64,000 nucleotides of DNA from Argopecten irradians (lineage: Eukaryota > Mollusca > Bivalvia > Pectinida > Pectinidae): positions 39,509,882 to 39,573,881 of the forward strand of contig NC_091145.1 in NCBI RefSeq assembly GCF_041381155.1, written 5' to 3'. The position numbers and the translations under genes were made by a program. Positions 3,041 through 48,942 of this stretch are shown piece after piece (the stretch's first letter is position 1; each line of letters opens with the position of its first letter). The notes beneath the pieces are model-generated. The model made no database searches, was not told the DNA's origin, and was given only the letters and a program-made list of their open reading frames with translations.

Positions 3041-3901
3041 CATGAAATACGATGGCTTCCAATCTTCATTCCAAGATTTCAGTATGGATAACGCTTCCTG
3101 GATGCTGCTCATGGTTTCATCTTCTGTTATGAATTGGCATACTGGTATATAGTCCACATTGGTCCTCACAACAACAAGGAATAATGGTAGGGCATACTTG
3201 GTGGTTTTATAGGTTGCGTCAAGCAAACACAAGGTATTACCATACAAGTTTAATAATCGTTGTTGCCATTCTTCCTGGTGGATAAAAAGGAACTTGCTGG
3301 TTGAACCATCCTCACAATCGCTGGCTGGTCTAAAATGTATCTTCCTTGAGGGGTCTTCTTCTTTCATCTTTTTTAACCAGTCTTCCAAATTTTCCTGATC
3401 ACATTGAGAAGAATGCTTAGAGGAAAGAGTTAAACAGATATGGTTTTTTATGTCTTTGTTGGTAGGAAAATATGACCTATCCATTGGGGAAGGTTTGGAA
3501 TCCTTGTCATCATACTTCTTGTCAACAAAAGTCTTCAGCAATCTTTTGATAATGCCTACATTTGTTATCCCATCACTCACAAACTCTCTGATTTTAGTTT
3601 TGACTGTATCATCAACTCTGTTTCCCATTACCGATTCTGGTGAAGGAATGTGATTGTTATGCCCGTCAGCTAAAGGGAGTGATACATAAATCCTTGTATC
3701 ACCATAGTCAGGATCATTTTGGAGCCGTTTCCTCAAATCATTCATTAGAATACTGCGTCTGCGGTCTTTCATACTCAAGTCAGAGGTGTAGTCCATATAC
3801 ATCTTAACATGTCTGATAGTTATCTTTGCCTGACAATCAACCTTCCTTGTAGGCTGAAGGTGAACCCTTTTCGTCTGAGCATAATCATGCAAGTTGGGAA
3901 T
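3041..3901 (-). CDS. CaRF C-terminal part and MULE transposase core exon
   Basis: This is a large exon of 287 codons with acceptor TTTTCTAG/ATTCCC and donor ATG/GTTGGT. It begins IPNLHDYAQTKR and carries the basic, cysteine-containing CaRF element (DCQAKITIRHV). A middle region is rich in charged residues. It is followed by the MULE hallmark strand LLDATYKTTKYALPLFLVV at about 3170-3235. The aspartate of LLDATYKTT is the position expected for the first catalytic Asp in MULE transposases. The exon itself has no internal stop. Confidence 0.8.
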
Positions 3902-3930
3902 CTAGAAAATAGAAAGCCAATATAGAGATC

Positions 3931-5297
3931 ACTGAGGTGACGGGCCTCCAATGTAAGATTATATAGAGATGCGCTGAAGTGATGGGCCTCCAATGTCTGA
4001 GTATACAGAGATGCAATGAGGTGACGGGCCTCCAATGTCTGACTATATAGAGATGCGCTGAGGTGACGGGCCTCCAATAACTGAGTATACAGAGATGCGC
4101 TGAGGTGACGGGCCTCCAATGCAAGATTATATAGAGATGCGCTGAAGTGACAGGCCTCCAATGTCTGACTATATAGAGATGCGCTGAGGTGACGGGCCTC
4201 CAATAACTGAGTATACAGAGATGCGCTGAAGTGACGGGCCTCTAATGTAAGTCTTTATAGAGATGCGCTGAGGTGACGGGCCTCCAATGTCTGACTATAT
4301 AGAGATGCGCTGAAGTGACGGGCCTCCAATGTCTGACTATATAGAGATGCGCTGAGGTGACAGGCCTCCAATAACTAAGTATACAGAGATGCGCTGAAGT
4401 GACGGGCCTCCAATGTCTGACTATATAGAGATGCGCTGAGGTGACGGGCCTCCAATAACTGAGTATACAGAGATGCGCTGAAGTGACGGGCCTCTAATGT
4501 AAGTCTTTATAGAGATGCGCTGAGGTGACGGGCCTCCAATGTCTGACTATATAGAGATGCGCTGAGGTGACAGGCCTCCAATAACTAAGTATACAGAGAT
4601 GCGCTGAAGTGACGGGCCTCCAATGTCTGACTATATAGAGATGCGCTGAGGTGACGGGCCTCCAATAACTGAGTATACAGAGATGCGCTGAAGTGACGGG
4701 CCTCTAATGTAAGGCTTTATAGAGATGCGCTGAGGTGACGGGCCTCCAATGCAAGATTATAAAGAGATGCGCTGAAGTGACGGGCCTCCAATGTCTGACT
4801 ATATAGAGATGCGCTGAAGTGACGGGCCTCCAATGTCTGACTATATAGAGATGCGCTGAGGTGACAGGCCTCCAATAACTGAGTATACAGAGATGCGCTG
4901 AAGTGACGGGCCTCTAATGTAAGTCTTTATAGAGATGCGCTGAGGTGACGGGCCTCCAATGCAAGATTATATAGAGATGCGCTGAAGTGACAGGCCTCCA
5001 ATGTCTGACTATATAGAGATGCGCTGAGGTGAAGGGCCTCCAATGTCTGACTATATAGAGATGCGCTGAGGAGACGGGCCTCCAATAACTGAGTATACAG
5101 AGATGCGCTGAAGTGGCGGGCCTCTAATGTAAGTCTTTATAGAGATGCGCTGAGGTGACGGGCATCCAATGCAAGATTATATAGAGATGCGCTGAAGTGA
5201 CGGGCCTCAAATGTCTGACTATATAGAGATGCACTGAGGTGACGGGCCATCTATGTAAGACTATATAGAGATGCGCTGAAGTGACAGGCCTCCAAAC
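3931..5297. repeat. 42 bp minisatellite, about 32 copies
   Basis: The unit contains GAGATGCGCTGAGGTGACGG followed by GCCTCCAAT and a variable ACTATATA segment. Variants alternate between GTCTGACTATA, AACTGAGTATAC, GCAAGATTATA and GTAAGTCTTTATA linkers and between GAGGTGAC and GAAGTGAC. Because 42 is divisible by 3, several minus-strand frames stay open and spell a 14-residue repeat (LEARHLSASLYSQT). This lies inside the intron of the CaRF-MULE-SWIM gene, so I do not regard it as coding. Confidence 0.95.
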
Positions 5298-26100: not shown

Positions 26101-29100
26101 ATATCCTCGTCAATAAACATGGACATTTGTCAGAGTTACAGCCTGAATATCCTCGTCAATAAACATGGACTTTTGTCAGAGTTACAGCCTGAATATCCTC
26201 GTCAATAAACATGGACATTTGTCAGAGTTACAGCCTGAATATCCTCGTCAGTAAACATGGAAACTTTTGTCAGAGTTACAGCCTGAATATCCTCGTCAGT
26301 AAACATGGACTTTTGTCAGAGTTACAGCCTGAATATCCTCGTCAATAAACATGGAAATTTGTCAGAGTTACAGCCTGAATATCCTCGTCAGTAAACATGG
26401 ACATTTGTCAGAGTTACAGCCTGAATATCCTCGTCAGTAAACATGGACTTTTGTCAGAGTTACAGCCTGAATATCCTCGTCAATAAACATGGACTTTTGT
26501 CAGAGTTACAGCCTGAATATCCTCGTCAATAAACATGGACATTTGTCAGAGTTACAGCCTGAATATCCTCGTCAATAAACATGGACTTTTGTCAGAGTTA
26601 CAGCCTGAATATCCTCGTCATAAACATGGACTTTTGTCAGAGTTACAGCCTGAATATCCTCGTCAATAAACATGGACATTTGTCAGAGTTACAGCCTGAA
26701 TATCCTCGTCAATAAACATGGACATTTGTCAGAGTTACAGCCTGAATATCCTCGTCAATAAACATGGACTTTTGTCAGAGTTACAGCCTGAATATCCTCG
26801 TCAGTAAACATGGACATTTGTCAGAGTTACAGCCTGAATATCCTCGTCAATAAACATGGACATTTTGTCAGAGTTACAGCCTGAATATCCTCGTCAGTAA
26901 ACATGGACATTTGTCAGAGTTACAGCCTGAATATCCTCGTCAATAAACATGGACTTTTGTCAGAGTTACAGCCTGAATATCCTCGTCAATAAACATGGAC
27001 ATTTGTCAGAGTTACAGCCTGAAATATCCTCGTCAATAAACATGGACATTTGTCAGAGTTACAGCCTGAATATCCTCGTCAGTAAACATGGACTTTTGTC
27101 AGAGTTACAGCCTGAATATCCTCGTCAATAAACATGGACATTTTGTCAGAGTTACAGCCTGAATATCCTCGTCAATAAACATGGACTTTTTGTCAGAGTT
27201 ACAGCCTGAATATCCTCGTCAGTAAACATGGACTTTTGTCAGAGTTACAGCCTGAATATCCTCGTCAATAAAACATGGACTTTTGTCAGAGTTACAGCCT
27301 GAATATCCTCGTCAGTAAACATGGACTTTTGTCAGAGTTACAGCCTGAATATCCTCGTCAATAAAACATGGACTTTTGTCAGAGTTACAGCCTAAATATC
27401 CTCGTCAGTAAACATGGACTTTTGTCAGAGTTACAGCCTGAATATCCTCGTCAGTAAACATGGACTTTTGTCAGAGTTACAGCCTGAATATCCTCGTCAA
27501 TAAACATGGACTTTGTCAGAGTTACAGCCAATGTCCTCGTCAATAAACATGGACATTTGTCAGAGTTACAGCCTGAATATCCTCGTCAGTATAAACATGG
27601 ACTTTTGTCAGAGTTACAGCCTGAATATCCTCGTCAATAAACATGGACTTTTGTCAGAGTTACAGCCTGAATATCCTCGTCAGTAAACATGGACATTTGT
27701 CAGAGTTACAGCCTGAATATATCCTCGTCAGTAAACATGGACTTTTGTCAGAGTTACAGCCTGAATATCCTCGTCATAAACATGGACTTTTTGTCAGAGT
27801 TACAGCCTGAATATCCTCGTCAATAAACATGGACTTTTGTCAGAGTTACAGCCTGAATATCCTCGTCAATAAACATGGACTTTTGTCAGAGTTACAGCCT
27901 GAATATCCTCGTCAATAAACATGGACACTTTTGTCAGAGTTACAGCCTGAATATCCTCGTCAGTAAACATGGAACATTTGTCAGAGTTACAGCCTGAATA
28001 TCCTCGTCAGTAAACATGGACATTTGTCAGAGTTACAGCCTGAATATCCTCGTCAATAAACATGGACATTTGTCAGAGTTACAGCCTGAATATCCTCGTC
28101 AATAAACATGGACTTTTGTCAGAGTTACAGCCTGAATATCCTCGTCAATAAACATGGACTTTTGTCAGAGTTACAGCCTGAATATCCTCGTCAATAAACA
28201 TGAATGGACTTTTGTCAGAGTTACAGCCTGAATATCCTCGTCATAAACATGGACACTTTTGTCAGAGTTACAGCCTGAATATCCTCGTCAATAAACATGG
28301 AAATTTGTCAGAGTTACAGCCTGAATATCCTCGTCAGTAAACATGGACTTTTGTCAGAGTTACAGCCTGAATATCCTCGTCAATAAACATGGACTTTTGT
28401 CAGAGTCACAGCCTGAATATCCTCGTCAGTAAACGTGGAAATTTGTCAGAGTTACAGCCTGAATATCCTCGTCAGTAAACATGGACTTTTGTCAGAGTTA
28501 CAGCCTGAATATCCTCGTCAAGTAAACATGGACTTTTGTCAGAGTTAGAGCCTGAATATCCTCGTCAATAAACATGGACATTTGTCAGAGTTTACAGCCT
28601 GAATATCCTCGTCAGTAAACATGGACTTTTGTCAGAGTTACAGCCTGAATATCCTCGTCAGTAAACATGGACTTTTGTCAGAGTTACAGCCTGAATTTCC
28701 TCGTCATAAACATGGACATTTGTTCAGGGTAACAGCCTGGATATCCTCGTCAGTAAACATGCACTTTTGTCAGGATTACAGCCTGAATATCCTCGTTGGT
28801 AAACATGGACTTTTGTCAGAGTTACAGCCTGAATATCCTCGTCAGTAAACATGGACATTTGTCAGAGTTAAAGCCTGAATATCCTCGTCAATAAACTTGA
28901 ACATTTGTCAGAGTTAGAGCCTGAATATCCTCGTCAATAAACGTGGACATTTGTCAGAGTTACAGCCTGAATATCCTCGTCAATAAACATGGACATTTTG
29001 TCAGAGTTACAGTACCTGAATATCCTCGTTCAATAAACATGGACATTTTGTCAGAGTTACAGCTGAATATCCTCGTCAGTAAACATGGACTTTTGTCAGA

Positions 29101-32100
29101 GTTACAGCCTGAATATCCTCGTCAGTAAACATGAACTTTTGTCAGAGTTACAGCCTGAATATCCTCGTCAGTAAACATGAACATTTGTCAGAGTTACAGC
29201 CTGAATATCCTCGTCAATAAACATGGACATTTTGTCGGAGTTACAGCCTGAATATCCTCGTCAATAAACATGGACTTTTGTCAGAGTTACAGCCTGAATA
29301 TCCTCGTCAGTAAACATGGACTTTTGTCAGAGTTACAGCCTGAATATCCTCGTCAGTAAACATGGACTTTTGTCAGAGTTACAGCCTGAATATCCTCGTC
29401 AGTAAAACATGGACTTTTGTCAGAGTTACAGCCTGAATATCCTCGTCAGTAAACATGGGCATTTGTCAGAGTTACAGCCTGAATATCCTCGTCAAGTAAA
29501 CATGGACATTTGTCAGGGTTAGGGCCTGAATATCCTCGTCAGTAAACATGGACATTTGTCAGAGTACAGCCTGAATATCCTCGTCAAGTAAACATGGACT
29601 TTTGTCAGAGTTACAGCCTGAATATCCTCGTCAGTAAACATGGACTTTTGTCAGAGTTACAGCCTGAATATCCTCGTCAGTAAACATGGACTTTTGTCAG
29701 AGTTACAGCCTGAATATCCTCGTCAGTAAACATGGAACTTTTGTCAGAGTTACAGCCTAAATTTCCTCGTCAGTAAACATGGACTTTTGTCAGAGTTACA
29801 GCCTGAATATCCTCGTCAGTAAACATGAACTTTTGTCAGAGTTACAGCCTGAATATCCTCGTCAGTAAAACATGGACTTTTGTCAGAGTTACAGCCTGAT
29901 TATCTTCGTCAGTAAACATGGAACATTTGTCAGAGTTAGAGCCTGAATATCCTCGTCAATAAACGTGACATTTGTCAGAGTTACAGCCTGAATATCCTCG
30001 TCAATAAACATGGACTTTTGTCAGAGTTACAGCCTGAATATCCTCGTCAAGTAAACATGGACTTTTGTCAGAGTTACAGCCTGAATATCCTCGTCAGTAA
30101 ACATGGACATTTGTCAGGGTTACAGCCTGAATATCCTCGTCAGTAAACATGAACTTTTGTCAGAGTTACAGCCTGAATTTACTCGTCAGTAAACATGGAC
30201 ATTTGTCAGAGTTACAGCCTGAATTATACTCGTCAGTAAACATGGACATTTTGTCAGGGTTACAGCCTGAATATCCTCGTCAGTAAACATGGACTTTTGT
30301 CAGGATTACAGCCTGAATATCCTCGTCAGTAAACATGGACTCTTTGTCAGAGGTTACAGCCTGAATATCCTCGTCAAGTAAACATGGACTTTTGTCAGAG
30401 TTACAGCCTGAATATCCTCGTCAGTAAACATGGACATTTGTCAGAGTTACAGCCTGAATATCCTCGTCAGTAAACATGGACATTTGTCAGAGTTACAGCC
30501 TGATTATCCTCGTCAATAAACATGGACATTTGTCAGAGTTACAGCCTGAATATCCTCGTCAGTAAACATGGACTTTTGTCAGAGTTACAGCCTGATTTCC
30601 TCGTCAGTAAACATGGGCATTTTGTCAGAGTTACAGCCTGATTTCCTCGTCAGTAAACACATTTGTCAGAGTTAGCCTGAATATCTCGTCAATAAACTTG
30701 AACATTTGTCAGGGTTAGAGCCTGAATATCCTTATCAATGAACGTCGACATTTGTCGGAGGTACAGCCTGAATATCCTCGTCAATAAACATGGACATTTA
30801 TTAGAGTTACAGCCTGAATATCCTCGTAAGTTAAACATGGACTTTTGTCAGGGTTACAGCCTGAATATCCTCGTCAGTAAACATGAACTTTTGTCAAAGT
30901 TACAGCCTGAATTTACTCTCGTCGTCAGTAAACATGGAAACTTTTGTCAGAGTTACAGCCTGAATATCCTCGTCAATAAACATGGCTTTTGTCAGAGTTA
31001 CAGCCTGAATATCTCGTCAATAAACATGGACTTTTGTCACAGTTACAGCCTGAATATCCTCATCAATAAACGTGGACATTTGTCAGAGTTACAGCCTGAA
31101 TATCCTCGTCAATAAACATGGACATTTGTCAGAGTTACAGCCTGAATATCCTCGTCAATAAACATGGACTTTTGTCAGAGTTACAGCCTGAATATCCTCA
31201 TCAATAAACATGGATTTTGTCAGAGTTACAGCCTAAATCTCCTCGTCAATAAACATGGACATTTGTCAGAGTTACAGGCCTGAAATCCTCGTCAATAAAC
31301 ATGGAAATTTGTCAGAGTTTCAGCCTGAATATCCTATCAATAAACGTGGACATTTGTCAGAGTACAGCCTGAAATCCTCGTCAATAAACATGGACATTTG
31401 TCAGAGTTACAGCCTGAATATCCTCGTCAAGTAAACATGGAATTTGTCAGGGTTACAGCCTGAATATCCTCGTCAATAAACATGGACTTTTGTCAGAGTT
31501 ACAGCCTGAATATCCTCGTCAGTAAACATGGACTTTTGTCAGAGTTACAGCCTGAATTTCCTCGTCAGTAAACATGGGCATTTGTCAGAGTTACAGCCTG
31601 AATATCTCGTCATAAACATGAACATTTGTCAGGGTTAGAGCCTGAATATCCTCGTCAGTAAACATGGACATTTGTCAGAGTTACAGCCTGAATTTACTCG
31701 TCAGTAAACATGGACTTTTGTCAGAGTTACAGCCTGAATATCCTCGTCAGTAAACATGGACATTTGTCAGAGTTACAGCCTGAATATCCTCGTCAGTAAA
31801 CATGGACTTTTGTCAGAGTTACAGCCTGAATATCCTCGTCAGTAAACATGGACATTTGTCAGAGTTACAGCCTGAATTTACTCGTCAGTAAACATGGGAC
31901 ATTTGTCAGAGTTACAGCCTGAATATCCTCGTCAGTAAACATGGACATTTGTCAGGAGTTACAGCCTGAATATCTCTTCAGTAAACATGGACATTTGTCA
32001 GAGTTACAGCCTGAATATCCTCGTCAATAAACATGGACTTTTGTCAGGGTTACAGCCTGAATATCCTCGTCAGTAAACATGGACTTTTGTCAGAGTTACA

Positions 32101-32770
32101 GCCTGAATATACTCGTCAGTAAACATGGACATTTGTCAGAGTTACAGCCTGAATATCCTCGTCAGTAAACATGAACTTTTGTCAGGGTTACAGCCTGAAT
32201 ATCCTCGTCAGTAAACATGGACATTTGTCAGAGTTACAGCCTGAATTTACTCGTCAGTAAACATGGCTTTGTCCGAGTTTACAGCTGAATATCTCGTCAG
32301 TAAACATGGAACTTTTGTCAGGGTTAGAGCCTGAATATCCTCGTCAGTAAACATGAACTTTTGTCAGGGTTAGAGCCTGAATATCCTCGTCAGTAAACAT
32401 GGACTTTTGTCAGAGTTACAGCCTGAATATCCTCGTCAGTAAACATGGACATTTTGTCAGAGTTACAGCCTGAATATCCTCGTCATAAACATGGACTTTT
32501 GTCAGAGTTACAGCCTAAATATCCTCGTCAGTAAACATGGACATTTGTCAGAGTTACAGCCTGAATTTACTCGTCAATAAACATGGTCTTTTGTCAGAGT
32601 TACAGCCTAAATATCCTCGTCAGTAAACATGGACATTTGTCAGAGTTACAGTCTTAATATCCTCGTCAATAAACGTGGACATTTATCAGAGTTAGAACCT
32701 GAATATCCTCGTCAATAAACATGGACATTCGTCAGAGTCAGGGCCTGAATATCCTCATCAATAAACATGG
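23152..32770. repeat. 46 bp satellite, about 209 copies
   Basis: The unit is CAGAGTTACAGCCTGAATAT followed by CCTCGTCA(G/A)TAAACATGG and AC(T/A)TTTGT. Two sites are dimorphic throughout, GTAAAC/ATAAAC and GACTTTTG/GACATTTG, in many combinations. From about 27000 rightwards single-base indels become common. Since 46 is not a multiple of 3, open frames across it (for example MDFCQSYSLNILV...) are rotation artefacts. The array fills 9.6 kb with no other sequence inside. Confidence 0.97.
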
Positions 32771-33173
32771 ATATATTAAACTCACATTATTTTACAAGCA
32801 TTAATTTCCATCAAAATCATATATCCATGTATTCAGAAACATATATGATGAGTTAAAATATGTTTTGTACTATTAGATAGTAAAAATTAAAATGTATCAA
32901 CGAGGTTGTATTTGCTAACATTTACAGGTTTCTGTACACTAGTATCTGACTATATTTAGGCGATTGCTGTAATAACTTGAATTGGTTACATATGCAGATA
33001 TTAGTAACATTCTTGTATATTTAATGTATGATTGTACACTTTGCCGGATTGCCACAAAAACCTCTCTCTACAGTTTTGAATTTAAATTAAATTTGAATGA
33101 TATTTCCGGAATGTAATGTTAGTTTTATACATGTTGACAAGTAATATATAATTGTATGCATAAATGTTAAAAT

Positions 33174-33453: not shown

Positions 33454-34062
33454 ACCTGACATCTTCCACCTTAAACTTCTTGTTAAACTTCAAATGAAAT
33501 ATCACAACCTTTGGAAATTATATTCAGGAAATCGCTAGATAAAGGGAACATTCCAGACAATTGGCGAATTGCAAATGTGACTCCTTTACATTAGAGTGGG
33601 AATCCCAATAAAGTGGAGAACTATCGTCCAATAAGTCTGACCTTAATCCCAGGAACAATTCTCGAAAGAATGATTAGGGACAAGCTTGTAGATCATATGG
33701 ACAGGAATCATCTCTTTACAAAACATCAACGTGACTTCAGATCTGGTAAATCCTGTACTATTGACATGATGGAAGTCCTTGAACACTGGCATAAGCCATA
33801 GACAAAGGAAGCTATATCGATCGACTCAATCTATATTGACTTCAGTAAAGCCTTTGATAAAATTCCTCATAAACATCTACTTCAAGAACTTTTGGGTTAG
33901 GTTTTTACTGGAAAATACTGCAGTGGATAGAAGACTTCTTATTCAACTTACAACAACGAGTTGTTATTCATGGTGAAACTTCTGGACTAGTAGATGTGAC
34001 TAGTGGTGTACCACAAGGTAGTGTCTTAGGTCCGGTTCTATTTCTGATATATATCAATTTAC
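33454..34062 (+). mobile_element. Non-LTR retrotransposon (LINE, CR1/Jockey-like) RT fragment
   Basis: Translation in more than one frame gives successive reverse-transcriptase blocks: [92 protein letters not shown]. These are RT motifs of CR1/Jockey-type LINEs. The catalytic YADD block and both ends are missing, and frames shift several times, so it is a dead 5'- and 3'-truncated copy. Confidence 0.85.
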
Positions 34063-36210
34063 CATAGCTTACGACGGGTTTAGAAGGCAGCTAGGCCAGG
34101 ACAAAATACCCACCTTATGGTACAGTGTAATACGTACAAAATACTTGCCGAATGAAGATCCTGAATAAGGTTGGCTGTTTGTTTGCTTTGCAAGTGGTGG
34201 TCAATCAATGCAATGTAATATTTAAAACTCTGTACAAAGACTCTTTCATATGTGGATATGAAGCATAAACGATGTTCTACTCGAGGGTCACAAAATGTTG
34301 TAAAACCCCAGGCTTGCTATGTTTAAAAAACGAATATGTGGCCATGGAATAGAAATATTTGTATTTTGGATTATCGAATATACAAGGGGGGTTCGTGAAG
34401 AAACTCGAGAGTCGTTATTATGCAACTCGGGTAAAAAATGAACGATCACTAAGTAAAAAACAACATTGTTCTTCAATACTTATATTTGAAAACTGTACAT
34501 AACCTCTATCGTATTCACCTCGCTATCCATTACTCTATAACGAGTTATGAATATAACCGTGGATATTCTATTATAAAATGCATAAAATTATCACTACTTG
34601 TTTTACCACAAAGCTTACATTGTACGACTTCAGTCACACATGATATCGAATATTTAAATAATTCTATTAAATCCCATAAATACTGACGACAGGTTTGTAT
34701 TTGACTTACTAATAATACAGGATTTACTCCAGGATTACAGTGGATGACGTTATATCTTATAATTTCATCACCATCTCTCAGCGTTTCATTCCATCTTAAA
34801 AAAATAAAATTCATATAAAAACCTGTTAATGAAATGTTTCCAGCACATCGCTGGTGGCACAAATACATTTAAGATATAGTCATTATTTTAAAAATCTATG
34901 TTGAATTTAATAAATATTCTATATACAAGAGGAAGAAATCCTATTTGAGTACTTGAAGTGTTGCATTCCAACAATCGACATTGTCTAGTACATGAAATAA
35001 AAATGTTTTCCATCAAAAATTAGCACCACCAATACACAATTTGTTCCAGAACAATAAGTTCCGTCTTTCCACCTCTCCCCATAAATCAAACGATCCTAAG
35101 CATTGAACAGTCACTTATGAGGAGGACGTTTTAGGATGACCTATACAACGACTATACCCATATCACTGTGTTCATTCTAACTCTTCTACAGTTCTTTTGG
35201 CATACGAGTTTTATACTTCACAACCATACAACATACTGTTTCATCCGTATATAGCAAAGAAAACAATTATTGTGTCAAAAGGTAACCGAAACCTGTATAA
35301 GAAATACTAAACGCTTTAGAAACACGTAGTAAGAACTGCACCAGCTAAGCGTATTCAAAACGATAGTTAATGATGCCAGGACATTTTCATCCTTCCGCAT
35401 TTACTTTTACCTTTTGCTTTGATTTTCACACAATAAATAGTTAAGGTCACAAATGATGATGACTCCGGACCATTTCTATCAATTGATCACACCGCAACCA
35501 TGGTACCTTTCCTTACAGGATAGCTGAGACGGGAATGTTGGTGCCCGGCAAATGTATGCCCAGGAAACAGATCTCAAAGTAAGTCCAAAATGATCAGTAA
35601 TAAATTCGAATGATGAGTCCGCTTCTACAGCTTTACACATCTAAAAACAAGCGCGTCAGCTCTACTATCTTTAAAAAAAAGCAAAGCGAAGTCTATGAGG
35701 ATATAACTGACACCGAAAAACGTGACCGTTATGGCGCCAACTGATCACATCAAAATAGCTGTTCCATCTTGTTGATTAAATCACCGTTGATAAACGGTTT
35801 TTCTGGTCTAACTTTAACAATTTTAACGCACCCAATATGAGTTAATAATGTAAATATAAGTATTAAACTATGTTCCTATGGAATCTTTAGTCTATATATA
35901 TGCCAGAGATTTGCAGACAATCATTTCATAATGCGCTAGCGCGCAATGTCCTTTAAAGCTCTGACATCAATATAGACCATGGATTCCATAGTAAGATAGT
36001 TAAATACATAAATATGGATGTAACAGAGTAATTGCCAGTAAGAACGCCTATTATCCCATAGATTGCGTCGTCCGTACATTTGTTAGATGGCGCAGTCACA
36101 CCCTTATTACAAATGTTCAGCTTCAGGGGATCGGACCGATGCCAGATTTAGGTGATCTTCCCTTATCATTAGCACTTGGTACCATGGGGATGACGGGGTA
36201 AGTTTTGACT
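34063..36210. other. Intergenic DNA with possible LINE remnant
   Basis: The minus strand 34545-34868 has an open frame with CKLCGKTSSDNFMHFII, similar to the zinc-binding C terminus of LINE ORF2 proteins, but the last cysteine is replaced. A ~60 bp segment at 35953-36015 (AAGCTCTGACATCAATATAG) resembles 33395-33450 just before the LINE fragment. Nothing else was recognised. Confidence 0.35.
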
Positions 36211-36212
36211 AT

Positions 36213-37275
36213 CTTGTTGGTAATACACGTGTAATTGTATTTCATGGTTTGTAATTCATGTGTAATTGTATAGCTTGTTTTGTAATACATGTGTAATTGT
36301 ATTGTTTAGTTTGTAATGCACGTGAAATTGTATTGCTTGGTTTGTAATACATGTGTAATTGTATTGATCGGTTTGTAATACACGTGTAATTGTTTTACTC
36401 GGTTTTTAATACATATGTAATTGTATTGCTTGGTTTGCAAAGTACGTGTAATTGTATTGTTTGGGTTGCAATGCATGTTGAAATTATATTGCTTGGTTCT
36501 TAATGCACGTGACATTGTATTGCTCGGTTTGTAATACATTTGTAATTGTATTGCTCGGTTTGTAATACATTTGTAATTGTATTGCTTGTTTTGTAATTCA
36601 TGTGCAATTGTATTGCTTGTTTTGTGATGCACGTAAAATTGTATTGCTCGGTTTGTAATACACGTGTAATTGTATTGCTCGGTTTGTAATACATGTGTAA
36701 TTGTATTGTTTGGTTTGTAATGCACGTGAAATTGTACTGCTCGGTTTGTAATACATGTGTAATTGTATTGCTTGGTTTGTAATGCACGTGTAATTGTATT
36801 GCTCGGTTTGTAATACACGTGTAATTGTATTGCTTGTTTTGTAATACATATGTTAATTGTATTTCTTGGTTTGTAATGCACGTGACATTGTATTGCTCGG
36901 TTTTTAGTACATGTGTAATTGTATTGCTCGGTTTGTAATACACGTGTAATTGTATTGCTCGGTTTGTAATACATGTGTAATTGTATTGCTCGGTTTTTAA
37001 TACATGTGTAATTGTATTGCTCGGTTTGTAATATATGTGTAATCGTATTGATTGTTTTGAAATACACGTGTAAATGCATTGCTCGGTTTGTAATACACAT
37101 GTAATTGTATTGCTTGTATTGTAATGTACGTGTTATTGTATTGCTCGGTTTGTAATACATGTGTAATTGCATTGCTTTGCTTGTAATGCACGTGTAATTG
37201 TATTGCTTGGGTTGTAATACATGTGTCATTGTATTGCTTGGTTTGTATTGCACGTGACATTGTATTGCTTGGTTT
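36213..37275. repeat. 31 bp minisatellite, about 34 copies
   Basis: The unit is GGTTTGTAATACATGTGTAA followed by TTGTATTGCTC. Variants alternate ACATGTG/CACGTG and CTCGG/CTTGG. All three minus-strand frames remain open over long stretches because the unit lacks stop triplets. A 315-codon frame (36306-37253) of NTITRVLQTEQYNYTCITN type results. There is no splice or start context, so it is treated as an artefact. Confidence 0.95.
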
Positions 37276-37328
37276 ATTTGTTTTAGTTAATGGCAAACAA
37301 GAAGGCACAATTATGCTCCATTTATTGA

Positions 37329-37498
37329 CATGCAGAACAGATGATCACCGATCTCGGTCATTTTTCGTCTGTCGTCTCCGATTTGATACAAGCTCTCTGA
37401 TTGACTCCTAGGAGCGAGTGGACCAATCAGAGAGCTTGTATCAAATCGGAGACGACAGACGAAAAATGACCGAGATCGGTGATCATCTGTTCTGCATG
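37329..37498. repeat. Perfect 75 bp inverted repeat with 20 bp loop
   Basis: Arms 37329-37403 and 37424-37498 are exact complements (outer end CATGCAGAACAGATGATCAC, inner end CTCTCTGATTG). Weaker symmetry extends outwards (TGCTCCATTTATTGA against its counterpart near 37500-37520). It could form a long hairpin in DNA or RNA. Origin is either a young foldback element or a palindromic duplication. Confidence 0.92.
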
Positions 37499-37889
37499 AC
37501 AATAAACAATAAACGGAGCGTGTGGATCGCTAAGGGATTTTTATAAGTGAGTTTATATTGAGGATCTGCACTTCAAGGGTTGCATTCGTTGAATGGATGG
37601 CGATTTTATTCGGTCTGTCCTCATTAGGGAATCGTGACCTGAGGATGTAGCGCGTACTTTCCGACTAACGATTTTTACACGAATCCTCGTAATTCAACTT
37701 TCGATTTGAAATAAAATTCGCCCATAATCCCATCATATCATATACAATAGTGATTAGTAAGGAATTGTCTTCAATGTAAGCTAAAACATATTCAGATCGG
37801 ATGATTTTTGTGGTGTTCAGATCATTTTACAATTAATCACCCCCTTTTCTGGAAATGGGATACAGGGCTAAGTAAACCACCTTTCAGTA

Positions 37890-37896
<7 letters not shown>

Positions 37897-37921
<25 letters not shown>

Positions 37922-38217
37922 GCGTCGTAAACCTGGGATCCAAGCGTGTCACATGCCCAATATCAGGTCTCTAGGCCTCCTAGTTATTCTCAAGTAGTCG
38001 TTTAAAGAATTTAACTTATTTGACCCTGTGACCTTGAATGAAGGTCAAGGTCATTTATTTGAACAAACTTGGTAGCCCTTCATCCAAGCATGCTGCAGGC
38101 CAAATATCAGTACCCTGGATCTTCTGGTTCTTGAGAAGAAGTCGTTTGAATGAAAAGTTTACGCACGGCACACGGCTCACGGCGGAGGGCGCACGACCTT
38201 CGGGTCAGATGACCTAA
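37897..38217 (-). repeat. Dispersed retro-like repeat with poly(A)
   Basis: On the minus strand it starts TTTAGGTCATCTGACCCGAA, includes AAGTCGTTTGAA-complement and a GACCTTGACCTTCATTCAAG block, and ends in about 24 A residues (37897-37920 as T). Related to 56905-57180. The terminal poly(A) suggests SINE-like retroposition. Confidence 0.65.
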
Positions 38218-38701
38218 AACTCTATTTAAGCTCATTCCTATTATATATTAGTTTCAAATTATTGAGGATGTTTTCCTATGAAATCCTTGCGCCGTTATTT
38301 CAGTCAATCAGAGACGCGTTACGAACGCTATGAAATGATAACATAATTGTTCAACCAATAGAAATGCTTGTAACAAGCAAGGTTTCCACTGAGTGGTGAC
38401 CCGCACAGACACGCTTAGTGTATACAATGTAAATGTTGTAAAAAAACCTTTAACAATATTTGTTTTCAAGTGAGGAAAGTACGGATTTATGATTGAAAGT
38501 AATATAGATAGTACATACGGGTAAATAACGTGGGTTTTAGCTGGCTAGAAGAAAGAAGTAAAATCAAACATACAAAATTATAACCTAAACCAAAATGATT
38601 TATTTCCTATATACAATATTACGGTAGCAAAGCCCTAAAACCGACAATTACTATACAAAATATCATAAATCATTGAATCATCTGCTATTGTATGAAAACA
38701 G
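38218..38701. other. Region upstream of the PTGR1-like fragment
   Basis: AT-rich. No exons for the missing N-terminal half of the PTGR1-like copy at 38702 were found here. Confidence 0.4.
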
Positions 38702-40337
<1,636 letters not shown>

Positions 40338-41542: not shown

Positions 41543-41659
41543 TCAGTCCCTGATTTTTACAATTATTTTACCTAAATTCCCTCCTTGAAATAATTTTAGA
41601 AATGCCTCCGGTACCTTGTCGAATCCTTCGTATATCAATTCCTTACCTCGGAGCTTTCC
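41543..41659 (-). CDS. PTGR1: PTGR1-like last exon
   Basis: Acceptor TGTTTCAG; reads GKLRGKELIYEGFDKVPEAF, LKLFQGGNLGKIIVKIRD, stop TGA (41543-41545). It begins in phase 0, matching the end of the 44607-44725 exon and completing VLE-GKL as in the family. Confidence 0.88.
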   Translation of the reverse strand, partial: GKLRGKELIYEGFDKVPEAFLKLFQGGNLGKIIVKIRD

Positions 41660-44600
41660 CTGAAACAAAGATCATACTTATGTTCAAAGTACGCTCAGCT
41701 TTGTTTGATATGTTTACAAAGTAAAGAATGGGCGTTGGAAAAAAACAAACATTTCGTAAATGAATATGATCGTGGACAGAAAGGGTCTTAAATCAGTGTT
41801 CATTTCATATGCGATTTTTTAAAACGAGTCTTAGGGGTTTTTTTTCGGGTCTTGTTTTTGACATAACTTTCCTGCTAGGCAAAGTCAATGGAAATCGCTT
41901 CAATTATATTACACTCGTGCCATAAAAATACAGGGCTGAAATTACTGGATATCAGACGGATTATGTTATAAAATATCCTCCTAACCTCTAGAACTAGATT
42001 ATACTGGGTCCGGTACGCCTCGTGCCAGCTGCTGAACCAGTTAATCTTCCTTACCTCTAGAACTAGATCATACAGAGCCAGGTACGCCTCGTGCCAGCTG
42101 CTGAACCAGTTAATCTTCCTTACCTTTAGAACTAGATCATACAGAGCCCGGTACGCCTCGTGTCAGCTGCTGAACCAATTAATCTTCCTTACCTATACAA
42201 CTAGATCATACAGAGCCAGGTACGCCTCGTGCCAGCTGCTGAACCAGTTAATCTTCCTTTCCTTTAGAACTAGATCATACAGGGTCCGGTACGCCTCTTG
42301 CCAGCTGCTGAACCAGTTAATCTTCCTTACCTTTAGAACTAGATCATACAGGGTCCGGTACGCCTCTTGCCAGCTGCTGAACCAGTTAATCTTCCTTTCC
42401 TTTAGAACTAGATCATACAGGGTCCGGTACGCCTCGTGCCAGCTGCTGAACCAGTTAATCTTCCTTACCTTTAGAACAAGATCATACAGAGACCGGTACG
42501 CCTCGTGCCACCTGCTGAACCAGTTAATCCTCCTTATCTCTTGAACTAGATCATACAGAGCCCGGTACGCCTCGTGCCAGCTGCTGAACCAGTTAATCCT
42601 CCTTACCTCTAGAACTAGATCATACAGAGCCCGGTACGCCTCGTGCCAGCTGCTGAACCAGTTAATCCTCCTTACCTCTAGAACTAATTCATACAGAGCC
42701 CGGTACGCCTCGTGCCAGCTGCTTAACCAGTTAATCCTCCTTACCTCTAGAACGAGATCATACAGGGCCCGGTACGCCTCGTGCCAGCTGCTGAACCAGT
42801 TAATCCTCCTTACCTCTAGAACTAGATCAAACAGGGCCCGGTACGCCTCGTGCCAGCTGCTGAACCAGTTAATCCTCCTTACCTCTAGAAAGAGATCATA
42901 CAAGGCCCGGTACGCCTCGTGCCAGCTGCTGAACCAGTTAATCCTCCTTACCTCTAGAACGAGATCATACAGGTCCCGGTACGCCTCGTGCCAGCTGCTG
43001 AACCAGTTAATCCTCCTTACCTCTAGAACGAGATCATACAGGGCCCGGTACGCCTCGTGCCAGCTGCTGAACCAGTTAATCCTCTTTACCTCTAGAACGA
43101 GATCATACAAGGCCCGGTACGCCTCGTGTCAGCTGCTGAACCAGTTAATCCTCCTTACCTCTAGAACTATATAATACAGGGCCCGGTACGCCTCGCGTCA
43201 GCTGCTGAACCAGTTAATCCTCCTTACCTCTAGAACGAGATCATACAAGGCCCGGTACGCCTCGTGTCAGCTGCTGAACCAGTTAATCCTCCTTACCTCT
43301 AGAACGAGATCATACAGGGCCCGGTACGCCTCGTGCCAGCTGCTGAACCAGTTAATCCTCCTTACCTCTAGAACTAGATCATACAGAGCCCGGTACGCCT
43401 CGTGCCAGCTGTTGAACAGTTAATCCTCCTTACCTCTAGAACTAGATCATACAGGGCCCGGTACGCCTCGTGCTATCTGCTGAACCATTTAATCCTCCTT
43501 ACCTCTAGAACTAGATCATACAGGGTCCGGTACGCCTCGTGCCAGCTGCTGAACCATTTAATCCTCCTTACCTCTAGAACTAGATCATACAGGGCCCGGT
43601 ACGCCTCGTGCCAGCTGCTGAACCAGTTAATCCTCCTTACCTCTAGAACTAGATCATACAGGGCCCGGTACGCCTCGTGCTATCTGCTGAACCATTTAAT
43701 CCTCCTTACCTCTAGAACTGGATCATACAGGGTCCGGTATGCCTCGTGATAGCTGCTGAACCATTTAATCCTCCTAACCTCTAGAACTATATCATACAGG
43801 GTCCGGTACGCCTCGTGCCAGCTGCTGAACCAGTTAATCCTCCTTACCTCTAGAACTAGATCATACAGAGCCCGGTACGCCTCGTGCCAGCTGCTTAACC
43901 AGTTAATCCTCCTAACCTCTAGAACTAGATCATACAGAGCCCGTTACGCCTCGTGCCAGCTGCTGAACCAGTTAATCCTCCTTACCTCTAGAACTAGATC
44001 ATACAGGGCCCGGTACGCCTCGTGCCAGCTGCTGAACCCGTTAATCCTCCTTACCTCTAGAACTAGATCATACAGGGCCCGGTACGTCTCGTGTCAGCTG
44101 CTGAACCAGTTAATCCTCCTTACCTCTAGAACTAGATCATACAGGGCCCGGTACGCCTCGTGCCAGCTGCTGAACCAGTTAATCCTCCTTACCTCTAGAA
44201 CTAGATCATACAGAGCCCGGTACGCCTCGTGCCAGCTGCTTAACCAGTTAATCCTCCTAACCTCTAGAACTAGATCATACAGAGCCCGGTACGCCTCGTG
44301 CCAGCTGCTGAACCAGTTAATCCTCCTTACCTCTAGAACTAGATCATACAGGGCCCGGTACGCCTCGTGCCAGCTGCTGAACCCGTTAATCCTCCTTACC
44401 TCTAGAACTAGATCATACAGGGCCCGGTACGCCTCGTGTCAGCTGCTGAACCAGTTAATCCTCCTTACCTCTAGAACTAGATCATACAGGGCCCGGTACG
44501 CCTCGTGCCAGCTGCTGAACCAGTTAATCCTCCTTACCTCTAGAACTAGATCATACAGGGCCCGGTACGCCTCGTGCCAGCTGCTGAACCAGTTAATCCG

Positions 44601-47600
44601 CCTTACCTCTAGAACTAGATCATACAGAGCCCGGTACGCCTCGTGCCAGCTGCTAAACCAGTTAAGTACATTGAAGCCCTGGACGGTTAGCTGTTTGGCT
44701 ACTATAGCTCGGTATATAGACAAACCTGTATTGGAAAAACATAATAAAACAAGTTTATAAGTATATATTACAGGACCTATAATGTGGAAAATGTCAGGGA
44801 TCATTTTGTGAAGGAAATATATATATCGTCGCTTCACAGGAAAGAAGGTATACCGACATTGGGAAATGATGTCTGAATTATCCCTCTACATGAATGACCT
44901 TAATCATCACTATACATGTGTTAAAGGCCTTGAGATAGAAGGTTTATATGTCACTAGACAAGGATATTTCTGGCTCTTATGATCATGAGAATATCAGTGT
45001 GACTGTATTCGGATAGGACTGTACTGACTTCAGGAGTAATGGTCAGTATCACCACTATACACAGATCCACTTACACTGAGAAAAGTCGATGTGTCGTACA
45101 GGGGTACATAGCTTCAAGTACGACATTGGGGAAGATGGTATGTATCATTACTATTATTCTGATCTATCAGCGTTACTTCCCTTCCTTTAACACCGTCACT
45201 GCACTGACGGAGCAGTCAAACGAAGGGAAGTAACTCTTATATGTTAGAATGGATCACTGACGAATAGCGTTGTTGACAGTGAGAGCAATCATTACTTATA
45301 TCTTAATCATTTTTTTCAAACTAGCATAGCAATTTGTGTAAAAGCAGACTACTAACCTTGAGAAGGCCGATGTATATCATCGCTATATAATGATATAGCG
45401 CCACACAAAGCAGCGCGTCCACCAACCGCCATGTGACAAATCACAGCACCTGCCGAATCACCACCGACCTGCAAATATAAAAGCATCAGAAAATATCCTA
45501 CTTTAGCAGACTTAGACCAACCCTATAAGTAGCTCTCTAGTTTCACAGACAGGGTATAACTAAAAATAATAAATATATTAAAAGAAAAATGCTGAAATAG
45601 ATGATTTTTTTATTAAAGACACATTACTTTTCCGAAGCAAACTGTAAAGGTTTCTTAAAAACATTGATAACATAAGAAAATACATATCGATGTCCTAAGA
45701 TGAGGTAATAATATCAAACACATGCAAGATTCCCTGCATAATATATGATTACTGGCGCTGGTGCAGTGATAGTCAACTACCGGACGGTTTTAGGACGACG
45801 GCGGCAAACATAAGACGACCCGCGTTATGAAAATTTACGTTTCCTTTATTTTAGTTAAATTTTTCAGACGATGATGATGAATGTAGTAATAGTAGTAAGT
45901 TAATAACTTTTGCGACTCTACAAAATTATCGATCTTTTACATTTCCGTTTCAAAAATTAAAAACCGTTTCGGAAAGGTATAATAGTGGGCCTTTAATGTG
46001 TGATACGCATACATCATAATTATTCTTTTTACACGTATTGAAGTAATATCGACTGAATTATAAACCTTTTCTGATTGTTAAAGTATAATAATGGTGATGG
46101 TAGTTATGTAACATTATATTTTTTGAACATGGAACTTACATTGTCGAAGAAACAATTGACACCATTTGGAGCCGTTTCTTGCAACTTTGCAGTGACATCA
46201 TCTGTTTTATAGTTGATAGCAGCATCTAACCCCAGATCATGTGTGATCCAGTGACATTTCTCGTCACTCCCACAGATTCCAATCACCTTACAACCCTGTC
46301 ATACAATAATGTTTATACTTCAGGCCAGGTGAGCTAATAATAGTTCATTGTGGTATACCCTAACGATAATAACAGTTTATTGTGGTATACCCTAACGATA
46401 ATAACAGTTTATTGTGGTATATTCTAATGATGATAACAGTTTATTGTGGTATACCTTAATGATGATAACAGTTTATTGTGGTATACCCTAACGATAATAA
46501 CAGTTTATTGTGGTATATTCTAATGATGATAACAGTTTATTGTGGTATACCTTAATGATAATAACAGTTTATTGTGGTATATTCTAATGATGATAACAGT
46601 TTATTGTGGTATACCTTAATGATGATAACAGTTTATTGTGGTATACCCTAACGATAATAACAGTTTATTGTGGTATATTCTAATGATAATAACAGTTTAT
46701 TGTGGTATACCTTAATGATAATAACAGTTTATTGTGGTATATTCTAATGATAATAACAGTTTATTGTTGTATACCTTAATGATAATAACAGTTTATTGTG
46801 GTATATTCTAATGATAATAACAGTTTATTGTGGTATATTCTAATGATAATAACAGTTTATTGTAGTATATTCTAATGATAATAACAGTTTATTGTGGTAT
46901 ATTCTAATAATAATAACAGTTTATTGTTGTATACCTTAATGATGATAACAGTTTATTGTGGTATACCCTAACGATAATAACAGTTTATTGTGGTATACCT
47001 TAATGATAATAACAGTTTATTGTGGTATATTCTAATGATAATAACAGTTTATTGTGGTATATTCTAATGATAATAACAGTTTATTGTGGTATATTCTAAT
47101 GATAATAACAGTTTATTGTGGTATACCCTAACGATAATAACAGTTTATTGTGGTATACCTTAATGATGATAACAGTTTATTGTGGTATACCCTAACGATA
47201 ATAACAGTTTATTGTGGTATACCTTAATGATAATAACAGTTTATTGTGGTATATTCTAATGATAATAACAGTTTATTGTAGTATATTCTAATGATAATAA
47301 CAGTTTATTGTGGTATATTCTAATATAAACAAGATGATGTAACAGTTTATTGTGGTATACCCTAACGATAATAACAGTTTATTGTGGTATATTCTAATGA
47401 TAATAACAGTTTATTGTGGTATATTCTAATGATAATAACAGTTTATTGTGGTATATTCTAATGATGATAACAGTTTATTGTGGTATATTCTAATGATAAT
47501 AACAGTTTATTGTGGTATATTCTAATGATAATAACAGTTTATTGTGGTATATTCTAATAATAATAACAGTTTATTGTGGTATACCCTAACGATAATAACA

Positions 47601-48942
47601 GTTTATTGTGGTATATTCTAATGATAATAACAGTTTATTGTGGTATATTCTAATGATAATAACAGTTTATTGTAGTATATTCTAATGATAATAACAGTTT
47701 ATTGTGGTATATTCTAATAATAATAACAGTTTATTGTGGTATACCTAAATGATGATAACAGTTTATTGTGGTATATTCTAATGATAATAACAGTTTATTG
47801 TGGTATACCCTAATGATGATAACAGTTTATTGTGGTATACCCTAACGATAATAACAGTTTATTGTGGTATATTCTAATAATAATAAAAGTTTATTGTAGT
47901 ATATTCTAATGATAATAACAGTTTATTGTGGTATACCCTAACGATAATAACAGTTTATTGTAGTATATTCTAATGATAATAACAGTTTATTGTGGTATAT
48001 TCTAATGATAATAACAGTTTATTGTAGTATATTCTAATGATAATAACAGTTTATTGTGGTATAACCTAATGATTACATCATGATATAAACTATTGAAGTT
48101 CGTTACAAATACTATAGATAAATACAGACCATACACTCGTATAAAAACTCCTAAATTTGGCATTCTAAATTAATTCTTAACATAATGATTTTACGCTTCA
48201 TTTCAGTTGCAAAAGCGTTAAAATGAGATGATCGGCTCTATTTGTACATTTACAGTAGAATGGAAAAAATAAATCAATGATTTTAAAACAAATAATTGAA
48301 TTTCATGATAAATACTACAGACCGTTGCTTTGGCTATTTGAGCGGCCACACTACCCACTGCACCACCAGCTGACGTCACCACCACAACGTCTCCCGCCCG
48401 TGGCTTACATATATGGGTCATGCCATAGTACGCCGTCAGACTGTAGAATAGGACATCTACACTCAACACAAATATAATCAACTGAAATATTGTTTTCTGT
48501 TAAATCGAAATAAAACATAAGGCATACAACAGTCTTTTATCATATTATGTTATTTAAAAAAAAGAAACCAAATACATATATTTCTTACATATTTTACACA
48601 ACTGCAACCTTTGCAAAGATTTCACGTCTCCTTATTTTTTAAAATAAATAATTTTGCTTAGTCTCATATAGGATTGTATTCGGATTTCATTTATTCGTTT
48701 CGTGAAGGAAATTCACGAGTAAAATGTCAATTTATGGATTTTTGTTTTCTGTCAGCGATGCAACATCTTTGCCATACCCTGTAAGCCCGAGCATTCCAAG
48801 AGCATTAGAAACCGGAACGTCTCCCATGATTGGCAGTTGCCGAAGTGACTTCATATCAGATACACGGGTAAGTGTCCGCCATCCAACGTTCGCCAACACC
48901 AAGGAATCAACAGGGAATCGAGGATTTTTACTTTGAAGGACT
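41543..48942 (-). CDS. PTGR1: Prostaglandin reductase 1-like gene, N-terminal exons missing, exon-derived array inside
   Basis: Six exons (48778-48942, 48323-48440, 46140-46295, 45357-45468, 44607-44725, 41543-41659) join with all phases correct to a stop. Together they make about 262 codons; the human protein is about 329, so roughly 70 N-terminal residues are not found. Family: NADPH-dependent MDR reductases of alkenals and 15-oxo-prostaglandins, cytosolic. Visible marks are SKNPRFP...NVGWRT, then ALGMLGLTG/LTAYYGMTHI, the cofactor loop TSAGGAVGSVAAQIAK, GCKVIGICGSDEK, ALCGAISLYSDD, AKQLTVQGFNV, and the C-terminal EGFDKVPEAFLKLF..GNLGKIIVKI. Introns host a 32 bp minisatellite and, directly after the 44607-44725 exon, a 69 bp array copied from that exon's end. 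The 5' end abuts a divergent gene at 49380 with only about 440 bp between, so the first exons were lost or never duplicated. Confidence 0.88.
41981..44675 (-). repeat. 69 bp minisatellite made from a PTGR1 exon end plus its splice donor, about 39 copies
   Basis: On the minus strand each unit reads AACTGGTTCAGCAGCTGGCA, CGAGGCGTACCGGGCTCTGT, ATGATCTAGTTCTAGAG, then the intron start GTAAGGAGGATT. The unit is divisible by 3 and translates as NWFSSWHEAYRALYDLVLEVRRI. A 305-codon frame (42193-43110) spans 13 units. Some units carry CAGCTGACACG, giving a stop, and some have altered donors (GTTAGG, GAAAGG, GATAAG). Homogeneity varies: units left of about 42540 carry linkers AAGATTAAC, and those to the right AGGATTAAC. 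Confidence 0.95.
44607..44725 (-). CDS. PTGR1: PTGR1-like penultimate exon, source of the 69 bp array
   Basis: The 119 nt exon, acceptor CAATACAG, first donor CTAGAG/GTAAGG, encodes LSIYRAIVAKQLTVQGFNVL, NWFSSWHEAYRALYDLVLE. Family comparison (human ...FVVYRW...LLKWVLEGKI) shows this exon should end at VLE. Its last ~57 nt and the first ~12 intron bases recur about 39 times downstream. Reading on without splicing adds about three more in-frame 23-residue repeats before a stop near 44439. Confidence 0.85.
45357..45468 (-). CDS. PTGR1: PTGR1-like exon VGG...CGAIS
   Basis: The 112 nt exon, acceptor ATTTGCAG, donor CAAG/GTTAGT, encodes VGGDSAGAVICHMAVGGRAA, LCGAISLYSDDIHRPSQ. The CGAIS.Y.D motif is standard for this family. 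It leaves in phase 1. Confidence 0.85.
46140..46295 (-). CDS. PTGR1: PTGR1-like exon GCKVIG...FFDN
   Basis: Exactly 52 codons, acceptor TGACAG, donor GACAAT/GTAAGT. Reads GCKVIGICGSDEKCHWITHD, then NYKTDD and NGVNCFFDN. The homologous exon of the other copy (38702-38854) is one codon shorter. Confidence 0.88.
46318..46345. repeat. Tail fragment of the GGCCAGGTGAGCTAA repeat
   Basis: TTCAGGCCAGGTGAGCTAAT abuts the 32 bp minisatellite, whose units are rich in TAATAA. It is the same tail as at 5738-5763. Confidence 0.6.
46346..48068. repeat. 32 bp minisatellite, about 54 copies
   Basis: The unit is GATAATAACAGTTTATTGTG followed by GTATATTCTAAT. Variants are GTATACCCTAAC and GTATACCTTAAT, plus GATGAT for GATAAT. 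It fills the intron between the PTGR1 exons at 46140-46295 and 48323-48440. One interruption lies near 47325-47340. Confidence 0.95.
48323..48440 (-). CDS. PTGR1: PTGR1-like cofactor-binding exon
   Basis: The 118 nt exon, acceptor TTCTACAG, donor ACG/GTCTGT, encodes LTAYYGMTHICKPRAGDVVV and the glycine-rich NADPH loop SAGGAVGSVAAQIAKAT. Using this acceptor rather than the AG 16 bases upstream gives perfect family alignment and phase. Confidence 0.85.
48778..48942 (-). CDS. PTGR1: PTGR1-like exon with GWRT region
   Basis: Encodes VLQSKNPRFPVDSLVLANVG, WRTLTRVSDMKSLRQLPIM and ALGMLGLTG. The donor is ACAGG/GTATGG. The start is set by the acceptor TTTCACAAG; alternative AG two bases away is possible. 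It lies upstream in the MDR fold, around the substrate-side loop. Confidence 0.8.

What the first reader, a model, noticed from the sequence alone, without database searches (positions are those of the whole stretch)
41981..44675. Coding exon end and its splice donor amplified into a ~39-copy array inside a PTGR1-like gene
The 69 bp unit equals the last ~57 nt of the penultimate exon (44607-44725) plus the first ~12 nt of the intron, so nearly every unit repeats a usable GAG/GTAAGG donor in frame. The unit length is a multiple of 3. Splicing could use any of many tandem donors, adding 23-residue steps (NWFSSWHEAYRALYDLVLEV...) to the reductase C-terminal part; unspliced copies with TGA would truncate it. 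A minisatellite born from an exon-intron boundary, with serial 5' splice sites, is something I have not seen described. It could tune isoform length or act as a splicing sink.
Basis: partly seen in the sequence, partly recalled or inferred. Interest (0 to 1): 0.88.

Follow-up and report, generated by a model that had tools for sequence, protein, structure and literature searches.

The report
Splice-donor minisatellite in a reductase gene
In an animal reductase gene, the end of one exon and its splice signal have been copied in tandem 38 more times into the next intron; this looks like a neutral repeat of a kind already known from two human genes, probably with little effect on the protein.

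Summary
The array is real: 69 bp x 39 at 41975-44665, minus strand, in a PTGR1-like gene. The unit is the last 57 nt of the penultimate exon plus the first 12 nt of its intron. Of 39 donors, 36 keep GT and 27 are exactly GAG|GTAAGG. 'Any of many donors in frame' is wrong: unit 3 carries an in-frame TGA and unit 18 a 1-nt deletion, so only donors 0, 1 and 2 give an intact C-terminus (+0, +23, +46 aa). Neither donors nor frame show constraint (1.44 variant units per donor position, 1.42 elsewhere; distinct variants fit neutral expectation; 10 of 38 units carry stops). The arrangement is not undescribed: human CBS has a 31-bp VNTR named c.1444_1467+7(16_21), and human ABCA7 a 25-bp VNTR beginning with its exon's donor GT, with one-unit retention near 2%. 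Most likely this is a neutral minisatellite born at an exon edge, spliced mainly at the first donor by exon definition, with minor +23-residue and nonsense by-products. No RNA, population or relative sequence was available, so donor use is inferred.

The parts
41975..44665 (-). 69-bp x 39 tandem array (1 exonic copy + 38 intronic copies)
   Evidence: (TRF)
44607..44725 (-). penultimate exon (119 nt) of the PTGR1-like gene; its last 57 nt are the seed copy; donor 0 after 44607
44469..44606 (-). units 1 and 2: the only intronic units whose retention keeps the frame open (donor 1 after 44538, donor 2 after 44469; +23 and +46 aa)
44400..44468 (-). unit 3, with in-frame TGA (stop for every transcript using donors 3-38)
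43848..44537 (-). units 2-6 and 7-11: five-unit block copied with 0,1,0,1,0 differences (recent block duplication)
   Evidence: coordinates from the unit list
43366..43433 (-). unit 18, 68 nt (1-nt deletion, frame shift for all later units)
41660..44606 (-). intron 5 (2947 nt), 89% array
41543..41659 (-). last coding exon to stop (GKLRGKELIYEGFDKVPEAFLKLFQGGNLGKIIVKIRD*)
45357..45468 (-). exon of the same gene (VGGDSAGAV...)
46140..46295 (-). exon of the same gene (GCKVIGICGSDEK...)
48323..48440 (-). exon of the same gene (LTAYYGM...AGGAVGSV...)
48778..48942 (-). first detectable exon (VLQSKNPRFPV...); 5' limit approximate; N-terminal exons not found
46335..48073 (-). second intronic minisatellite of the same gene, 32 bp x 54, filling 86% of intron 2; no exon sequence seen in it by eye (not searched)

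Best explanation
A minisatellite born when a 69-bp segment straddling the 5' splice site of the penultimate exon of a PTGR1-like gene was tandemly duplicated, then amplified by slippage or unequal exchange into an array that now makes up 89% of the intron. Nearly every unit carries a donor together with the exon-end context. The transcript is most likely spliced mainly at the first (exon's own) donor, because exon definition favours the upstream donor and the small exon when both introns are long. Downstream donors are used at a low level: donors 1 and 2 would give in-frame +23 and +46 residue proteins, and donors 3-38 give a nonsense transcript. The array itself evolves neutrally. Shown: anatomy, frames, stops, lack of detectable constraint. 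Inferred: donor use, neutrality for the organism, mechanism of amplification.
For: Array and seed identity. No constraint seen: donor 9-mer mean 1.44 variant units per position against 1.42 elsewhere; 51 of 69 dinucleotide positions vary no more than the GT; 42 distinct variants fall 9 synonymous, 29 nonsynonymous, 4 stop against 10.3, 28.3, 3.4 expected; 10 of 38 units have a stop in their own frame. Block duplication of units 2-6 into 7-11 and greater likeness of near neighbours (3.5 differences at lag 1, about 5 at lags 10-15) are usual for minisatellites. The window holds other large minisatellites (32 bp x 54, 31 bp x 34, 46 bp x 209, 42 bp x 33), so arrays are common here. Flanking introns are 631 and 2947 nt, above the 200-250 nt at which exon definition takes over; strict exon-definition events between donors of near equal strength prefer the upstream one (passages of PMC9225289). 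In ABCA7, retention of one VNTR unit was about 2 +/- 1% of the measured isoforms (passages of PMC5954066; I read '14 +/- 6 and 2 +/- 1%, respectively' in the order in which the paper names the two events).
Against: 31 of 39 donors pair with U1 about equally well (-9.9 to -10.1 kcal/mol; the other 8 lie at -3.4 to -6.9) and better than the gene's other four donors (-5.4 to -8.3), so the first donor has no edge in strength. Under the intron-centric rule of Reed and Maniatis the downstream-most donor would win, giving mostly nonsense RNA, and over all human alternative-donor events the downstream donor was preferred in about 60%; the upstream preference after filtering for equal strength is also only about 60%, a bias and not a rule (passages of PMC9225289). 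In ABCA7 VNTR length goes with lower expression and more exon 19 skipping. Few independent variant events underlie the neutrality test, so weak constraint would be missed. Rules and yardsticks come from human cells.
Confidence: 0.7

Rival explanations
1. The array is a splicing sink. The many equal U1 sites draw splicing downstream, most transcripts take donors 3-38, carry the unit-3 TGA and are degraded or truncated, and the gene is reduced in output in proportion to repeat number.
For: 36 of 39 donors keep GT; 36 of 39 donor choices (donors 3-38) lie behind the unit-3 TGA; donor 3 puts it 39 nt, and donor 4 108 nt, before the junction, more for later donors. In CBS a higher repeat number goes with lower enzyme activity (PMC5188458 passage); in ABCA7 VNTR length goes with lower expression (PMC5954066 passages).
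Against: Exon definition tends to favour short exons and, among equal donors, the upstream one when introns are long (PMC9225289 passages). In ABCA7 unit retention was not affected by VNTR size.
Confidence: 0.17
2. A working isoform dial: donors 0, 1 and 2 are used on purpose to give reductases with 0, 1 or 2 extra copies of the 23-residue C-terminal helix.
For: Unit length is a multiple of 3, the four junction codons are open, and donors 0-2 give intact C-termini with exon lengths 119, 188, 257 nt. A single-sequence AlphaFold model of exon plus two units is mostly helix (mean pLDDT 70.1, pTM 0.35).
Against: A multiple-of-3 unit with an open junction has a chance of about 0.28. No coding constraint seen in the units. 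Two stop-free leading units are expected about half the time ((28/38)^2 = 0.54, from the counts). The insert would fall between VLE and GK inside the conserved C-terminal part of the reductase (alignment); its effect was not modelled. The fold model is weak.
Confidence: 0.06
3. The gene is a non-functional partial copy, and the array is decay in a pseudogene (compatible with neutrality of the array).
For: N-terminal exons (about residues 1-70) were not found in the window. One donor is poor by sequence (ACG|GTCTGT). The neighbouring plus-strand copy has a broken frame in its penultimate exon.
Against: Six exons join into an open 261-aa frame, matching PTGR1 over 257 residues. Both differences between the exon copy and the unit consensus are synonymous, though two events are few.
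Confidence: 0.15
4. Assembly artefact: the unit number was inflated by mis-assembly.
For: No reads or second assembly available.
Against: The 38 units comprise 30 distinct sequences, and near neighbours are more alike than distant ones; an array of 2.7 kb is within one long read.
Confidence: 0.04

Closest known systems
Human CBS 31-bp VNTR, c.1444_1467+7(16_21)
   Same: The name (passages of PMC2630376) says that 24 nt of exon end plus 7 nt of intron are repeated 16-21 times, so each unit carries the donor; that the reference mRNA holds just one copy follows from the name (my inference). A review places it at the exon 13-intron 13 boundary, calls it non-coding, and reports that more repeats go with less activity (passage of PMC5188458).
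   Different: 31 bp is not a multiple of 3, the exonic part is shorter, copies are fewer, and polymorphism is shown. RT-PCR evidence of alternative splicing there is recalled (Lievers 2001, not held).
Human ABCA7 intron 18 25-bp VNTR
   Same: The array begins with the canonical donor GT of exon 18 and repeats the unit about 12 to 427 times; retention of one unit is measured (passages of PMC5954066).
   Different: The VNTR is described as lying in the intron from the GT on, without exon sequence in the unit; the unit is out of frame, so retention gives a premature stop. Exon 19 skipping rises with length; here the next exon is the last coding one, so skipping has no close counterpart.
Internal tandem repeats at exon-intron boundaries of human segmental-duplication genes (PMC2812944)
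   Same: Minisatellites at exon-intron boundaries of recent gene copies that change splicing (passages).
   Different: About 30 bp x 4 on average; the paper's point is the formation of novel introns. I saw nothing on serial identical donors in the passages shown.
CBS 844ins68
   Same: A duplication of a splice junction in which splicing strongly favours one of the two sites, keeping normal mRNA (passage of PMC2630376).
   Different: A single duplication of an intron 7/exon 8 junction, not an array. The passage says 'donor' but the work it cites is titled 3' splice site selection, so I take it as an acceptor case.

Membership tests
Splice-donor-bearing VNTR (CBS/ABCA7 kind) | Repeat unit contains the exon's authentic 5' splice site and the array starts at that site | tested here: met
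   39 donors in register, 36 with GT; exon tail 55 of 57 identical to unit consensus
Splice-donor-bearing VNTR (CBS/ABCA7 kind) | Ten or more tandem units of minisatellite size | tested here: met
   69 bp x 39
Splice-donor-bearing VNTR (CBS/ABCA7 kind) | Unit number varies between individuals | not testable with these tools
   no other individual, and no own genome held
Splice-donor-bearing VNTR (CBS/ABCA7 kind) | Transcripts that retain one or more units | not testable with these tools
   no RNA data
Prostaglandin reductase 1 / LTB4 dehydrogenase (PTGR1) | Sequence match over the catalytic and nucleotide-binding region | tested here: met
   1v3t E 3e-61 over query 1-257; PF00107 76.7 bits, cut-off 31.8
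Prostaglandin reductase 1 / LTB4 dehydrogenase (PTGR1) | Complete N-terminal domain and curated family score | tested here: inconclusive
   first ~70 residues not found in the window; PF16884 only 16.4 bits, cut-off 31; TIGR02825 221.7 bits, cut-off 579.85, for the partial protein
Intron gain from AGGT-containing tandem duplication | A duplicated copy supplies a new 3' splice site (AG) used with the donor of the copy before | tested here: inconclusive
   the consensus unit ends TCTAGAG|GTAAGG, pyrimidine share 0.62 upstream against 0.50-0.69 at the gene's five acceptors, but another AG lies directly upstream and a third 6 nt before that; use not testable. The family was seen only as a search listing and a passage

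The most novel reading that the evidence does not exclude
An in-frame splice-donor VNTR: because the unit is 69 nt and the first two intronic units are open, natural alleles could encode reductases with 0, 1, 2 or (in alleles where the TGA lies further in) more extra C-terminal helices. Array turnover would then change a protein's length ladder and its nonsense load without touching the exon. A bolder form: each TCTAGAG|GTAAGG junction acts as a zero-length recursive splice point, so the intron is removed unit by unit with no trace in the mRNA.
Probability: 0.09. Interest if true: 0.6.

Novelty: new member of a known kind. Interest (0 to 1): 0.33.

Why it matters
It adds a clean case to the two human precedents found, with 39 serial 5' splice sites, 31 of them nearly equal in U1 pairing, at even 69-nt steps behind nearly identical exon context. 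Nature has thus set up the classical duplicated-donor experiment at large scale: one long-read cDNA run would show which rule (first donor by exon definition, or last donor by intron proximity) wins when strength and context are nearly equal. It does not require a new mechanism.

Tried and rejected
Selection on donors or frame: tested and not seen. RNA structure as a donor selector: exon plus three units folds no better than shuffles (z 0.64, 75 of 100 shuffles fold at least as well). Antisense gene: the plus strand has a 335-aa stop-to-stop frame over the array (43753-44760), explained by a stop-free repeat unit; no antisense GTRAG donors in the consensus unit. Array elsewhere: an 18-base piece of the unit gave 48 matching stretches in prokaryote contigs, by record title mostly actinobacteria, and 1 in viral contigs, each with one match and so no array; taken as chance, uninformative, and these collections are not animal genomes. 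N-terminal exons: three N-terminal probes gave nothing convincing upstream of the first exon. Pfam on the stop-to-stop frame holding exon plus units (44439-44885): five families listed, none above its cut-off. Cassette use of single units as exons: AG sites in the unit are crowded by other AGs, thought unlikely but not excluded. Literature: nine searches, seen as listings; passages of five papers were read, none in full. The CBS 31-bp VNTR was a recalled lead, then confirmed in passages; ABCA7 came. One search found no papers; (mollusc) listed two, neither read. I saw no paper on an in-frame donor array in these searches, which cover open-licence papers only.
Full report
What is there. The minus strand of the window carries the 3' part of a PTGR1-like reductase gene. 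Six exons, 48942-48778, 48440-48323, 46295-46140, 45468-45357, 44725-44607 and 41659-41543, join into an open frame of 261 residues that matches prostaglandin reductase 1 structures (1v3t, E 3e-61, query 1-257) and Pfam ADH_zinc_N (76.7 bits, cut-off 31.8). The intron between the last two exons is 2947 nt, of which 89% is a 69-bp tandem array. The penultimate exon's own last 57 nt are the first copy: they match the unit consensus at 55 of 57, both differences synonymous, while the best match elsewhere in the window, both strands, is 28 of 57. The unit is 57 nt of exon end plus 12 nt of intron start. There are 39 donors in all, the exon's own and 38 copies; 36 keep GT and 27 are exactly GAG|GTAAGG.

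What the frame allows. The unit is 23 codons, and its junction codons (GTA AGG AGG ATT) are open, so intron units 1 and 2 read through in frame. Unit 3 has TGG changed to TGA. Joining each donor to the acceptor at 41659 shows that donors 0, 1 and 2 give C-termini with +0, +23 and +46 residues and the normal end. The script printed 13 of the 39 donors, among them 10 of the 36 donors 3-38; all 10 stop at the same TGA, and the 26 not printed must do so too since all contain unit 3. Unit 18 is 68 nt, which shifts the frame of all later units. Thus the ladder of isoforms is at most three steps long in this allele. A unit length divisible by 3 with four open junction codons has a chance of about 0.28, so the in-frame property is not striking.

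Selection. Over 38 units, positions of the donor 9-mer carry on average 1.44 variant units against 1.42 for all other positions; 39 of 69 nine-base stretches vary no more than the donor, and 51 of 69 dinucleotides vary no more than GT, itself counted. The 42 distinct variants divide into 9 synonymous, 29 nonsynonymous and 4 stop, against 10.3, 28.3 and 3.4 expected for the same changes at random positions; 10 of 38 units have a stop in their own frame. There is no sign that donors or frame are kept. The test has low power, since many units share variants by descent. Units 2-6 and 7-11 are copies of one block (0, 1, 0, 1, 0 differences), and near neighbours are more alike than distant ones: ordinary minisatellite growth. 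The duplicated block carried the TGA with it.

How it most likely works. By U1 pairing, 31 of 39 donors lie at -9.9 to -10.1 kcal/mol and 8 at -3.4 to -6.9; the gene's other four donors lie at -5.4 to -8.3. With near equal donors, choice depends on the unit that the spliceosome first recognises. When flanking introns exceed about 200-250 nt, the upstream donor and smaller exon tend to be preferred; with short introns the downstream donor is. These are biases: over all human events about 60% favour the downstream donor, and after filtering for equal strength about 60% favour the upstream one (passages of PMC9225289). Here the introns are 631 and 2947 nt and the exon is 119 nt with donor 0. I therefore expect mainly donor 0. 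In human ABCA7, where a VNTR repeats the donor GT of exon 18 about 12 to 427 times, retention of exactly one unit was about 2 +/- 1% and was not affected by array size, while exon 19 skipping rose and expression fell with array size (passages of PMC5954066). The first of these would give here a small amount of an in-frame +23 residue reductase; some nonsense RNA is also expected. A single-sequence model of exon plus two units is mostly helical but weak (mean pLDDT 70.1, pTM 0.35); it says little about tolerance. RNA folding of exon plus three units is no better than shuffles.

What is known. The human CBS 31-bp VNTR is named c.1444_1467+7(16_21), that is, 24 exon nucleotides plus 7 intron nucleotides repeated 16 to 21 times (passages of PMC2630376); more repeats go with lower CBS activity (passage of PMC5188458). 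The primary paper (Lievers 2001) is not held. ABCA7 is the second case. Tandem repeats at exon-intron boundaries that alter splicing are also reported for human duplicated genes (passages of PMC2812944). The present array differs in having a large exonic part, a unit divisible by 3, and 39 copies. I call it a new member of a known kind.

Limits. No whole genome is held for the window, no collection of animal genomes was on offer, and the species is not known to me; an invertebrate is my guess. No RNA or second individual was available. The N-terminal exons were not found, so a partial or dying gene is not excluded. The neighbouring plus-strand copy has a frame break in its penultimate exon.

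Noticed in passing
36025-40295 (+): A second, convergent PTGR1-like copy on the plus strand; the exon near 39853-39991 has a frame break (the similarity runs from one frame into another), so it looks like a pseudogene.
   Followed up: partly
36216-37275: 31 bp x 34 minisatellite starting about 18 bp after the donor of the plus-strand copy's exon 36025-36198; it does not include the donor.
   Followed up: partly
46335-48073: 32 bp x 54 minisatellite filling 86% of another intron of the same gene and ending about 40 bp before the next exon.
   Followed up: partly
23152-32771: 46 bp x 209 minisatellite, 9.6 kb.
   Followed up: no
3920-5295: 42 bp x 33 array (unit divisible by 3) with a 210-bp higher-order repeat; the minus strand reads LEARHLSASLY... 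in open frames next to a 359-aa stop-to-stop ORF (2822-3901) that by eye (recalled, not searched) resembles a MULE-like transposase.
   Followed up: no
43753-44760 (+): 335-aa antisense stop-to-stop frame across the array; a product of the stop-free repeat unit, no evidence of a gene.
   Followed up: partly
48317-48325 (-): Donor ACG|GTCTGT at the end of the exon 48440-48323, poor by sequence (U1 pairing -5.7 kcal/mol).
   Followed up: no
33595-33761 (-): Two short weak matches to PTGR1 N-terminal probes (E 0.07 and 3.9, the second with internal stops); perhaps remains of an N-terminal exon, perhaps chance.
   Followed up: no
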